From: a virus
Strand: one strand, 5' to 3'
Length of the DNA stretch: 40,581 bases
Virus record (IMG/VR): IMGVR_UViG_3300027749_000214
Location: 1 to 40,581 of that record
The position numbers and the translations under genes were made by a program. A model generated the notes under the pieces. That model searched no databases. It worked only from the letters and a program-made list of their open reading frames with translations, and had not been told where the DNA came from. Below, one piece after another: positions 34,693 through 36,524 of this stretch (its first letter is position 1; each line of letters starts with the position of its first letter).

Positions 34693-35030
34693 CGGACCCA
34701 ATCGTCGCAGCCGTCACCGCAAAAATGGAGGCCCGCAGTCAGTTTGGCCGGCGGAAATACGGCGTCGGCTTGGATCGGACCGATTTGTCGCAGCTTCAGT
34801 GGCTGATCCACGCGCAGGAAGAGGCGATGGACCTGGCGCAGTATCTAGAGGTGTTGATTTCCCAGATCGGGCTCCGGCCCGATGCGCTGCATCCCGCGCT
34901 GTGTGGTGCTGCTCCTGCCCGTTGCTCCTTTCCTGACGGCCAGGACGCCAACCTTACCTCGGCCGGAGCGGTGCCTAACGAACCACGCGACGGCCGAGGG
35001 CTTTTTGGGGCGGGTGATGGCGCAACCTGA
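34689..35030 (+). CDS. MazG-like / dATP-metabolism type early protein
   Basis: 113 aa, GTG start in a GTGA overlap. The N-terminal 60 residues match a motif common in phages: ARSQFGRRKYGVGLDRTDLS and LQWLIHAQEEAMDLAQYLE, where EE...D recalls the metal-binding helices of MazG-like nucleotide pyrophosphohydrolases. The rest (from about 68) is low-complexity Ala/Pro/Gly and overlaps the next gene by 14 bases. Function uncertain. Confidence 0.65.
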   Translation: MTDPIVAAVTAKMEARSQFGRRKYGVGLDRTDLSQLQWLIHAQEEAMDLAQYLEVLISQIGLRPDALHPALCGAAPARCSFPDGQDANLTSAGAVPNEPRDGRGLFGAGDGAT

Positions 35031-35529
35031 GGCACGTCTCCGGGCTCGCTGCCGCATGTGGTTGGATCAATTCCTGCCGTCGCCGGGCACTTTTACCGCC
35101 ATCGAACACGGTCGCGCCCACTCTGGCACGCCTGCACAGCGGGCTCGCGAGTGGCAGCGGCTCAAGGCCCAGGGCGTCAAGACGGGGCTCAGCGACATCA
35201 TGATCTGGTATCGCGGTCGGTTCATCGGCGTCGAACTCAAGGCCGGCACGAACACGGCATCCGCTGCTCAGGAAGATTTTGGCCGCGCCATGATCGCCAA
35301 CGGGTTTCAGTGGTCTGTCGTCCGCTCCGTCGAGGGTCTGGCGACCGTTCTGCACCAACACGGTGTGCCGCTTGCCTTGACGGCGCCGCACGTCGCCAGC
35401 GGATACGACCGCGAACTGGCCACGGCTGAGCCGGTCAAAAAAAACACTCGACGCTCCGCTAAATGCAAGCCCGAACCCTCCAAACTCGCCGCCATGGCTC
35501 GGTTGCGGCGGGCGGGGGTGTTCGCATGA
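35017..35529 (+). CDS. VRR-NUC domain endonuclease
   Basis: 170 aa from ATG 35017. VRR-NUC (PD-D/ExK) core: GVKTGLSDIMIWYRGRFIGV then ELKAGTNTASAAQEDF, the D...E-x-K metal site and the usual Gln, ending SVEGLATVLHQHGVPL. VRR-NUC proteins are structure-specific nucleases or resolvases. It sits beside the DNA methyltransferase. A basic C-terminal tail (KKNTRRSAKCKPEPSK) may bind DNA. The in-frame region upstream to 34882 is a shadow. Confidence 0.85.
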   Translation: MAQPEARLRARCRMWLDQFLPSPGTFTAIEHGRAHSGTPAQRAREWQRLKAQGVKTGLSDIMIWYRGRFIGVELKAGTNTASAAQEDFGRAMIANGFQWSVVRSVEGLATVLHQHGVPLALTAPHVASGYDRELATAEPVKKNTRRSAKCKPEPSKLAAMARLRRAGVFA

Positions 35530-36524
35530 ACGTCCTTGATCTCTTCAGCGGCATCGGCGGCTTTTCCCTCGGTCTGGAACGCGCCGGAATGAAAACCGTC
35601 GCCTTCTGCGAAATCGAGCCGTTCCCGCGCGCCGTCCTGGCGAAGCATTGGCCGGAGGTGCCCTGCTATGACGACATCCGCACCCTCACGGGAGAGCGTT
35701 TGGCGGCAGACGGAATTTCCGTTGATGTCATCTGCGGCGGGTTCCCGTGCCAGGATATCAGTTTCGCCGGAAAGGGCGCCGGGCTCGCGGGCGAACGGTC
35801 TGGCCTCTGGCGTGAGTATGCCCGCCTTATTGGCGACATTCGACCCCGCTTCGTCATTGTGGAAAACGTCGCAGCATTGCTTTCCCAAGGGCTTGGCGAC
35901 GTTCTCGGAGACTTGGCCGCGCTCGGGTATGATGCGGAATGGCATTGCATACCGGCTTCCGTCGTTGGTGCGCCTCACCGACGCGACCGGGTGTGGATCG
36001 TGGCCCACCCCCACAATGCGCGACATGGAGTCGCCGGCGAAGTGCAGCCGGGGCGCGGGGAGCCTTGCGGCGGGGAACGAATGGGTTCCGCCCCTGGCGG
36101 TGGCCGTTACGATGTGGCCGACCCCAAGGGCGAACGACCCGGAGAAACGCGGGGATTTCGACGCGACGAACCCGCGCAACGGGCTCCCGGGTGCAGTGAA
36201 ACTGTGGCCGACGCCAGCAGCGCGGGACTACCGGGCGCCGAACGCCCCGGACGGGGAGTCCCGATTGTCACGCCCGCCGACCTCTGGCGAGCAACTGCCA
36301 AATGCAGTTGGCGGCGTGCTGAACCCGGAATGGGTGGAACGGATGATGGGGTTCCCGGCCGGGCATACGGAAGTCGAGGGGTGGAAGCCTGGGAAGGCGA
36401 CACGCCCCGCACCGTAGGTAAGGGGTTCCCGAACCGCCGGCCGCGCCTTATGGCGCTAGGCAACGCCGTAGTCCCCCAAATCCCTGAACTCATCGGCCGC
36501 GCGATCATGGAGGCCAACCCATGA
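35526..36524 (+). CDS. DNA cytosine-C5 methyltransferase
   Basis: 332 aa from ATG 35526 (overlaps the VRR-NUC stop). Motif I DLFSGIGGFSLGLERAG (5-21), motif IV GGFPCQDIS with the catalytic C75, motif VI ENV (113-115), motif VIII HRRDRVWIVAHP (151-162), and motif X LGNAVVPQI (about 311-319). It would transfer a methyl group from SAM to C5 of cytosine, protecting phage DNA or altering host marks. The part after residue 165 is unusually Gly/Pro/Arg-rich, and another frame over it codes for a second protein-like sequence (35668-36417). Confidence 0.88.
   Translation: MNVLDLFSGIGGFSLGLERAGMKTVAFCEIEPFPRAVLAKHWPEVPCYDDIRTLTGERLAADGISVDVICGGFPCQDISFAGKGAGLAGERSGLWREYARLIGDIRPRFVIVENVAALLSQGLGDVLGDLAALGYDAEWHCIPASVVGAPHRRDRVWIVAHPHNARHGVAGEVQPGRGEPCGGERMGSAPGGGRYDVADPKGERPGETRGFRRDEPAQRAPGCSETVADASSAGLPGAERPGRGVPIVTPADLWRATAKCSWRRAEPGMGGTDDGVPGRAYGSRGVEAWEGDTPRTVGKGFPNRRPRLMALGNAVVPQIPELIGRAIMEANP
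35668..36417 (+). CDS. ORF overlapping the methyltransferase in another frame
   Basis: Up to 249 aa in the +1 frame inside the methyltransferase gene; ATG 35818 gives 199 aa. It carries text I know from phage proteins found with such methylases: TFDPASSLWKTSQHCF, FSETWPRSGMMRNGIAYRLP, repeats of WPTP(T/R/A)xR, and the end LNPEWVERMMGFPAGHTE. A random shadow frame would not be expected to show these. No clear ribosome site is seen, so it may be translated weakly, by frameshift, or be a relic of gene fusion. Function unknown. Confidence 0.55.
   Translation: MTTSAPSRESVWRQTEFPLMSSAAGSRARISVSPERAPGSRANGLASGVSMPALLATFDPASSLWKTSQHCFPKGLATFSETWPRSGMMRNGIAYRLPSLVRLTDATGCGSWPTPTMRDMESPAKCSRGAGSLAAGNEWVPPLAVAVTMWPTPRANDPEKRGDFDATNPRNGLPGAVKLWPTPAARDYRAPNAPDGESRLSRPPTSGEQLPNAVGGVLNPEWVERMMGFPAGHTEVEGWKPGKATRPAP

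What the first reader, a model, noticed from the sequence alone, without database searches (positions are those of the whole stretch)
35526..36417. Cytosine methyltransferase gene seems to code for two proteins in different frames
In frame A, residues 110-162 carry motifs VI and VIII of a C5 methyltransferase, and motif X is at the end. In the +1 frame over the same DNA there is FSETWPRSGMMRNGIAYRLP, repeated WPTP units and LNPEWVERMMGFP, text I recognise from phage proteins that accompany such methylases. Both frames thus look conserved. In codons 35817-35978 of frame A, 23 of 54 end in A or T by my count, more than in neighbouring genes, as expected under a double constraint. This could be a true overprinted gene pair or a widespread mis-annotated frame.
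Basis: partly seen in the sequence, partly recalled or inferred. Interest (0 to 1): 0.75.

Follow-up and report, generated by a model that had tools for sequence, protein, structure and literature searches.

The report
Two enzyme halves in overlapping frames
A phage DNA-methylating enzyme appears to be built from two proteins that are written on top of each other in the same stretch of DNA, and relatives of this doubly used gene occur in phages of many different bacteria.

Summary
Frame A (35526-36524) is a C5-cytosine methyltransferase. Frame B (35668-36417, +1) is a real second gene (PHROG_1008) behind a Shine-Dalgarno-like GGAGGT. In 69 viral relatives picked by frame A alone, +1 stops number 4 against 223 expected; the other four frames show no depletion. 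Four-fold sites of A diverge 0.68 outside B, but 0.24 and 0.12 over B's two main motifs. B beats every A-preserving shuffle in 135 of 135 loci. B carries motif IX, which A lacks. Of 48 methyltransferases without B, 45 carry IX in their own frame. Of 26 with B, 19 have IX in B only, 4 in A only, none in both; 3 are broken, cut or lack it. Actinobacterial relatives join A core, B part and motif X in one frame. AlphaFold gives A a confident core and motif X with a disordered overprinted stretch between. Best reading: a two-chain methyltransferase, A catalytic, B supplying motif IX and probably target recognition. Precedent: M.EcoHK31I (I-VIII and X on the large chain, IX on the small). Not shown: that A and B bind, that B sets specificity, or any activity. 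Between motifs VIII and X, A is only weakly constrained.

The parts
35526..36524 (+). Frame A: C5-cytosine DNA methyltransferase, 332 aa (motifs I-VIII, then a long variable stretch, then motif X); lacks motif IX
   Evidence: PF00145 E 2.4e-41 over residues 1-163, PHROG_363 E 1.5e-82; AlphaFold core pLDDT about 97 and motif X up to 95
35668..36417 (+). Frame B (+1): 249-aa protein of PHROG_1008, lying wholly inside frame A; carries FSETWPRSGM, three WPTP units and motif IX
   Evidence: PHROG_1008 E 1.5e-30; conserved in +1 in the viral relatives; shuffle test 135 of 135
35654..35659 (+). Shine-Dalgarno-like GGAGGT, 8 nt before the ATG of frame B
   Evidence: excess of such starts across 135 loci, 60 with 5 nt or more against 29 expected
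35745..35753 (+). Motif IV (PCQ, catalytic cysteine) in frame A
   Evidence: P74 and C75 invariant in 96 rows
35862..35870 (+). Motif VI (ENV) in frame A; the same DNA reads KTS of WKTSQ in frame B
35902..35961 (+). FSETWPRSGMMRNGIAYRLP of frame B, over VLGDLAALGYDAEWHCIPAS of frame A just before motif VIII
   Evidence: four-fold divergence of A falls to 0.237 here
35979..35990 (+). Motif VIII (RRDR) in frame A
36001..36216 (+). Three WPTP units of frame B (36001, 36115, 36205), over VAHP / VADP / VADA of frame A
36030..36422 (+). Frame A residues 169-299: predicted mostly disordered linker from motif VIII to motif X, overprinted on B
   Evidence: pLDDT below 50 over most of it; only weak A-frame constraint
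36319..36369 (+). Motif IX (LNPEWVERMMGFPAGHT) in frame B; the A-frame reading EPGMGGTDDGVPG is largely its shadow
   Evidence: four-fold divergence of A 0.12
36453..36485 (+). Motif X (ALGNAVVPQIP) in frame A, just downstream of B's stop

Best explanation
The locus encodes one two-chain C5-cytosine methyltransferase in two reading frames of the same DNA. Shown: frame B is a conserved protein-coding gene in the +1 frame; A has the catalytic core (motifs I-VIII) and motif X but no motif IX; B has motif IX. Inferred: A and B, translated separately from one transcript (B from ATG 35668 behind GGAGGT), assemble so that B's WPTP region and motif IX form the missing small, DNA-reading domain, while A's overprinted middle is a flexible linker that carries motif X back to the core. 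The enzyme would methylate the phage's DNA against host restriction. Ancestrally the small domain was in one chain with the core; this clade moved it into the +1 frame. Splits, fusions and shifts of IX or X between frames arose within the clade.
For: B is coding: +1 stops 4 vs 223.1 expected in 69 A-selected loci, other frames ratio 0.96-1.14; four-fold divergence 0.67-0.70 in A1-60, 0.237 at 121-140, 0.12 at 261-300, 0.52-0.69 after B ends; B score above all 40 A-preserving shuffles in 135 of 135 and A above all 40 B-preserving shuffles in 135 of 135; codon-position ratio pos3/pos1 2.52 outside B, 0.87-0.96 in the middle and IX; codon usage fits B, not A, in the middle. B supplies IX: in the 135-locus set IX is found in B in 129 by profile (the other 6 keep an MG[FLY]P core by eye) and in A in 0 by pattern. 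Of 80 A-type ORFs from bacterial genomes, 45 of 48 without B carry IX+X in frame A; of 26 with B, 19 have IX in B and not A, 4 have a B-type IX in A and a B that ends before it. Natural one-frame versions: Mycobacterium phages Wachhund gp69 and DLane gp65 and Tsukamurella plasmid protein WP_074850583.1 match PHROG_363 and PHROG_1008 in one ORF. Split versions: in Anthony, Samy, Phelipe, JangDynasty and KBurrousTX the second ORF carries PTP units, a IX-like motif and X. hhalign of 12 IX-X tails of relatives to 7 of ordinary C5-MTases: probability 91%. A model: core and X confident, 169-299 mostly below 50; best PDB matches M.HhaI/M.HaeIII over about 170 columns. All sampled B-bearing, split and fused forms lie on one side of a 100/99 branch.
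Against: No expression, binding or activity data. The B model is poor (pLDDT 60) and has no PDB match. B as a whole did not align to 11 ordinary C5-MTases by hhalign (probability 0.1); the 91% rests on tails that include motif X, which B of the window lacks. No Pfam or NCBIfam match to B of the window, nor a consistent Pfam match among 96 B proteins. Of the 26 B-bearing ORFs in bacterial genomes three do not show the rule: L280 is frame-broken, L334 is cut by the contig end, and L305 shows neither IX nor X in any frame. That the WPTP region is the target-recognition domain is inferred; PMC3404938 places the predicted TRD of M.EcoHK31I in its large chain. No single start codon of B is conserved in all loci: 30 of 135 have no SD-like start under the criteria used.
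Confidence: 0.8

Rival explanations
1. B is a real conserved protein with a separate job (for example a regulator of A or an anti-restriction factor), and A alone is the active enzyme with its own recognition domain in the variable stretch.
For: B could not be modelled or matched to a known fold. A's variable stretch stays open (0 stops observed against 384 expected under B-preserving shuffles in 112 loci, though loci with a truncated A were not in that set) and is mildly constrained (59 of 112 above all shuffles, 110 of 112 above the mean).
Against: A lacks motif IX, which 45 of 48 relatives without B have in frame. In four loci IX is in A and B lacks it, and in no classed locus is it in both. 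One-frame fusions of both parts exist. A's variable stretch is predicted mostly disordered.
Confidence: 0.1
2. B is reached from A by programmed ribosomal frameshifting, giving an A-B fusion instead of, or besides, a separate B.
For: Fusions of A core with B's C-terminal part exist in one frame, and in intact loci A and B are one frame apart.
Against: In the window a shift would lose motif X, which is in A. B has its own SD and ATG, with an excess of SD-led starts across loci. B's conserved N-terminal part overlaps motifs VI-VIII, so a shift would drop either VIII or that part. No search for slippery sites was made.
Confidence: 0.07
3. B is a shadow: its conservation is forced by frame A and high GC, and databases carry a mis-annotated frame.
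For: Frame A is itself highly conserved over motifs VI-VIII, so part of B's similarity there is forced (null median 58 of 176 bits). Six C5-MTases without a full B give weak B scores of 21-30 bits at +1, as a forced resemblance would.
Against: A-preserving shuffles never reach B's score (135 of 135; 112 of 112 between VIII and X). Stops are depleted in +1 only. In the ten A-selected loci with gene GC 0.45-0.50, stops fall only at the two ends of the stretch, with 3.8-10.2 expected each. Relatives whose A frame is closed after motif VIII keep B.
Confidence: 0.02

Closest known systems
M.EcoHK31I (YGGCCR), two-polypeptide C5-MTase
   Same: Large chain with motifs I-VIII and X, motif IX on the small chain (PMC3404938, passage read). 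From recall only: the small chain is nested in an alternative frame of the large one (Lee, Kam and Shaw 1995, not held).
   Different: PMC3404938 places the predicted TRD in the large chain, whereas here A's variable stretch is predicted mostly disordered and weakly constrained. EcoHK31I is listed as a Type II restriction-modification system (PMC6456624, passage read); here no restriction partner showed among five neighbouring ORFs scanned, and the rest of the contig was not scanned. Sequence kinship not tested.
M.AquI (CYCGRG), two-subunit C5-MTase
   Same: Core I-VIII on one chain, IX on another (PMC3404938, passage read).
   Different: In M.AquI motif X goes with IX on the small chain; that matches the split relatives, not the window, where X is in A.
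Single-chain C5-MTases (PF00145; M.HhaI and M.HaeIII as solved structures)
   Same: Core fold and motifs I-VIII and X.
   Different: Single-chain relatives examined in bacterial genomes carry IX in the same frame and have no B (45 of 48). M.HhaI and M.HaeIII genes themselves were not tested for a +1 frame.
PHROG_1008 ('DNA methyltransferase')
   Same: Frame B is a member (E 1.5e-30).
   Different: The family label says nothing of the frame relation; the split and fused relatives match it up to motif X, which B of the window lacks.

Membership tests
C5-cytosine methyltransferase (PF00145) | Motifs I, IV, VI, VIII in frame A | tested here: met
C5-cytosine methyltransferase (PF00145) | Motif X in frame A | tested here: met
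C5-cytosine methyltransferase (PF00145) | Motif IX in the same chain | tested here: not met
   PF00145 match stops at residue 163; IX pattern in A in 0 of 135 loci and in B in 108, in neither in 27; by profile in B in 129 of 135
M.EcoHK31I-type two-polypeptide C5-MTase | Large chain I-VIII and X, IX on the small chain | tested here: met
   definition from PMC3404938
M.EcoHK31I-type two-polypeptide C5-MTase | Small chain nested in another frame of the large one (recalled for M.EcoHK31I) | tested here: met
   window frames; the M.EcoHK31I side is recall only
M.EcoHK31I-type two-polypeptide C5-MTase | Predicted TRD in the large chain | tested here: inconclusive
   A 169-299 mostly pLDDT below 50, weak A constraint
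M.EcoHK31I-type two-polypeptide C5-MTase | Both chains needed for activity | not testable with these tools
   needs expression
M.EcoHK31I-type two-polypeptide C5-MTase | Sequence kinship with M.EcoHK31I | not tested
   its sequence was not at hand
M.AquI-type | IX and X together on the small chain | tested here: not met
   X is in frame A in the window; the M.AquI pattern is met in split relatives L061, L070, L173, L174
Overprinted (overlapping) gene pair | Purifying selection in both frames | tested here: met
   over the whole overlap; between VIII and X strong for B, weak for A, and not significant for A of the window itself
Programmed ribosomal frameshift | Slippery site and stimulator, no independent start | not tested
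   no slippery-site search made; independent starts favoured

The most novel reading that the evidence does not exclude
A large, old clade of phage and prophage C5-methyltransferases divides one enzyme between two frames of the same DNA: catalysis in one frame, motif IX and the whole target-recognition domain in the other. Motifs IX and X have repeatedly moved from one frame to the other by indels. The overlap couples change in specificity to the catalytic core, and this makes it one of the longest-kept and most widespread overprinted gene pairs in DNA viruses.
Probability: 0.6. Interest if true: 0.82.

Novelty: new variant of a known kind. Interest (0 to 1): 0.72.

Why it matters
Long same-strand overlaps that are kept over deep time are rarely demonstrated in DNA phages and bacteria (general knowledge), and annotation rules work against them (PMC6070908 says that overlapping is penalised). 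Here the second frame is one half of an enzyme, so the claim can be tested with a plain methylation assay. If right, a widespread phage methyltransferase has been annotated as one chain where two are needed, and frame A expressed alone would be expected to be inactive. Its split, fused and frame-swapped relatives also give a natural series for studying how overprinting begins and ends.

Tried and rejected
Mis-annotated frame: rejected by the shuffle and stop tests. AT-ending codons as evidence: true count but within the range of other ORFs. Fold of B: poor model, no PDB match. Profile comparison of all of B with 11 ordinary C5-MTases: no match; only IX-X tails of relatives match. Solved-structure search with the B profile: best E 1.6, not significant. 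Pfam on split and fused relatives: beyond the core only one weak hit in the IX-X part, E 0.2 in Samy. E. coli copies: only 4 of 5426 genomes hold a relative of the Salmonella phage S9-5 gene, too few for a population test. Antisense ORF 35307-36179: no depletion of stops in any antisense frame across 69 relatives, so read as a GC by-product. A first SD null with stops counted overstated the excess; the same-span null is used.

Literature: ten searches of the open library led to no paper describing this overlap among those I opened. Ten papers were opened by term search only. Passages were seen in PMC3404938, PMC8903798, PMC8227390, PMC3439449, PMC6456624, PMC8936443, PMC6070908, PMC10885494 and PMC3091744; in PMC5009743 three methylase terms were not found in the part held (300,000 of 475,107 characters). 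PMC6070908's table lists gp61 and gp62 both as DNA-cytosine methyltransferase; no mention of their overlap was in the passages shown. The 1995 M.EcoHK31I paper is not held, so its nested-frame detail is recall.

Rows dropped: 18 of 161 loci as duplicates or without a best pair at +1; 8 of 143 without clear motif patterns or with ambiguous letters; 2 of 71 A-selected loci without motif patterns; 23 of 135 with a short variable stretch.

Full report
What is in the window. The window is a 40,581-base viral contig. Frame A, 35526-36524, is a 332-residue C5-cytosine methyltransferase (PF00145, PHROG_363). Frame B, 35668-36417 in the +1 frame, is a 249-residue ORF inside A that matches PHROG_1008 at E 1.5e-30 and no Pfam or NCBIfam family. 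Motif X of A lies beyond the given end, at 36453-36485.

Is B a gene? All 160 carry both families. The best A-B pair was one frame apart in 158 of 161 (window included); the other three are two loci where one indel appears to shift both frames together (L026, L057) and one split locus (L070). In the 69 non-redundant loci chosen by A alone that had clear motif patterns (of 71), the +1 frame between motif IV and motif X has 37 stops where A-preserving codon permutation expects 293, nearly all of them near B's own end. With the ends trimmed it is 4 against 223.1, with 66 of 69 fully open, while the other four frames have ratios 0.96, 1.01, 1.03 and 1.14. The three loci with stops are L083 and L132, where A is longer and the stops come after B's motif IX, and L106, with one stop inside B. 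L056, from the B scan, also has B in two pieces.

Constraint in both frames. Leaving out related clusters when training, B's profile score exceeds all 40 A-preserving shuffles in 135 of 135 loci (median 176 vs 58 bits). A's score exceeds all 40 B-preserving shuffles in 135 of 135 (186 vs 50). Four-fold sites of A differ in 0.67-0.70 of comparisons over residues 1-60, 0.525 over 61-80, 0.636 over 81-100, 0.355 over 101-120, 0.237 over 121-140, 0.392 over 141-160, and 0.124 and 0.117 over 261-300. They return to 0.522 and 0.693 after B ends. Windows 181-220 show no clear drop (0.60-0.63 on few sites). The ratio of third to first codon position divergence is 2.52 before B, 2.59 over residues 61-97, 1.35 over motifs VI-VIII, 0.96 and 0.87 over the middle and IX, and 1.89 over motif X. 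So the N-terminal part of B, before residue 98 of A, shows little constraint by these measures. Restricted to the stretch between motifs VIII and X, B beats all 30 shuffles in 112 of 112 loci, but A only in 59 of 112 (34.5 vs 22.5 bits). For the window itself A is not significant there: 46.7 against 40.7, sd 5.6. So over motifs VI-VIII both frames are strongly held; further on B is the strongly held protein and A is mostly kept open. The A-frame text EPxVGRVADGVP is largely the shadow of B's LNPxWVExLMGFP. Codon usage agrees: in the middle B scores 0.26 and A 0.02, against a mean of 0.19 for 31 proxy ORFs.

Translation of B. ATG 35668 follows GGAGGT by 8 bases. Across 135 loci, 60 have a start of B with an SD match of 5 bases or more, against 29 expected in the same span; 30 have none. 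The commonest place is the window's own ATG column, 21 loci.

What B is. Its end, LNPEWVERMMGFPAGHT, resembles motif IX. Twelve tails of split and fused relatives that hold both this motif and motif X align to seven tails of ordinary C5-MTases with probability 91% and E 1.1e-6 for one comparison; B as a whole does not. In the 135-locus set the B profile covers IX in 129, and the other 6 keep an MG[FLY]P core by eye; a strict pattern finds it in B in 108, in A in 0, in neither in 27. In bacterial genomes searched with PF00145 or the A profile, 80 distinct A-type ORFs were classed. Of 48 with no B, 45 carry IX and X in their own frame, 1 part of IX and 2 none. Six have a weak B score; 5 of these carry IX and X. 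Of 26 with B of 60 bits or more, 19 have IX in B and none in A (the match in A of L282 is to the linker, judged by eye). Four (L272, L330, L331, L332) have a B-type IX in A followed by X, while B's ORF ends before it (read by eye; the profile gives L330's B a spurious cover). L280 is frame-broken, L334 is cut by the contig end, and L305 shows neither IX nor X in any frame. No classed locus has IX in both frames.

One-frame and split relatives. Mycobacterium phage Wachhund gp69, DLane gp65 and the Tsukamurella plasmid protein WP_074850583.1 match PHROG_363 and PHROG_1008 in a single ORF, with motif X at the end. In phages Anthony, Phelipe, JangDynasty, KBurrousTX and Samy the A frame stops soon after motif VIII, and the next ORF carries PTP units, a IX-like motif and X. 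A census of 257 loci, duplicates and the window's copy included, gives 241 with B at +1 inside A and X in A, 7 at +1 with X in B (one of them the indel locus L026), and 9 others. Both chains are annotated in Paenibacillus phage Tadhana. In Acinetobacter phage ABMM1, Salmonella phage S9-5 and Microcystis phage Mel-JY01 only A is annotated, though B is open.

Structure and history. AlphaFold on 96 aligned A proteins gives residues 1-166 pLDDT mostly above 89 and about 97 over the first 70, most of 169-299 below 50, and motif X 87-95. The best two Foldseek matches are M.HhaI and M.HaeIII at 1.5 A over 168 and 170 columns. B's own model is poor (pLDDT 60), as might be expected of a chain that folds only with its partner; this is inference. 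In a tree of 78 cores, the 55 overprinted, split, fused and IX-in-A forms lie on one side of a branch with support 100/99 and the 23 ordinary ones on the other. Overprinting occurs in most lineages of the first side; the tree is unrooted and deep branches inside that side are weak.

Mechanism. Most likely A and B form one enzyme: A brings AdoMet and catalysis, B brings motif IX and, by position and by the one-frame relatives, the DNA-reading domain. Steps shown: B is coding, A lacks IX, B has it. Steps inferred: assembly, specificity, and protection of phage DNA. The precedent is M.EcoHK31I, whose large chain has I-VIII and X and whose small chain has IX (PMC3404938, passage read). That its small chain is nested in another frame is recall. 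M.AquI differs in having X on the small chain. The find is therefore called a new variant of a known kind: the division of motifs is known from a single enzyme in the papers seen, while the phage-wide overprinted clade and the movement of IX and X between frames were found in none of the papers opened.

Noticed in passing
window 35526-35529: Frame A starts inside the stop of the upstream gene (ATGA overlap); that gene (34882-35529) matches endonuclease / Holliday-junction-resolvase PHROGs, so the pair may be translationally coupled.
   Followed up: no
window 35307-36179 minus strand: A 290-aa antisense ORF lies over the pair; antisense frames of relatives show no stop depletion, so it looks like a by-product of composition.
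   Followed up: yes
L266 1501-2262 (E. coli PCP07014 prophage): A prophage relative annotated as a pseudogene shows a stop in both frames at about the same place, so both proteins appear to be lost together.
   Followed up: partly
L026, L057, L280: Loci in which a single indel seems to move both frames together; they may be sequencing errors or decayed copies.
   Followed up: partly
L174 2278-3619 (Streptomyces phage Samy): The annotated second methyltransferase gene starts well downstream of where its open frame begins, so its conserved N-terminal part is missing from the annotation.
   Followed up: partly
L177 2267-3433 (Acidovorax phage Alfacinha3 gp46): A B-like protein annotated as a cytosine-specific methyltransferase; the frame at +1 to it is closed and the frame one before it, where A would lie, was not read. 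It may be a B that stands alone.
   Followed up: no
L272, L330, L331, L332: A group in which the B-type motif IX sits in frame A directly before motif X while B is shortened; L272 and L061 have nearly identical cores but differ in this, a recent frame change.
   Followed up: partly
L305: A has its core and B is open for about 400 codons, yet neither motif IX nor X was found in any frame of the locus.
   Followed up: partly
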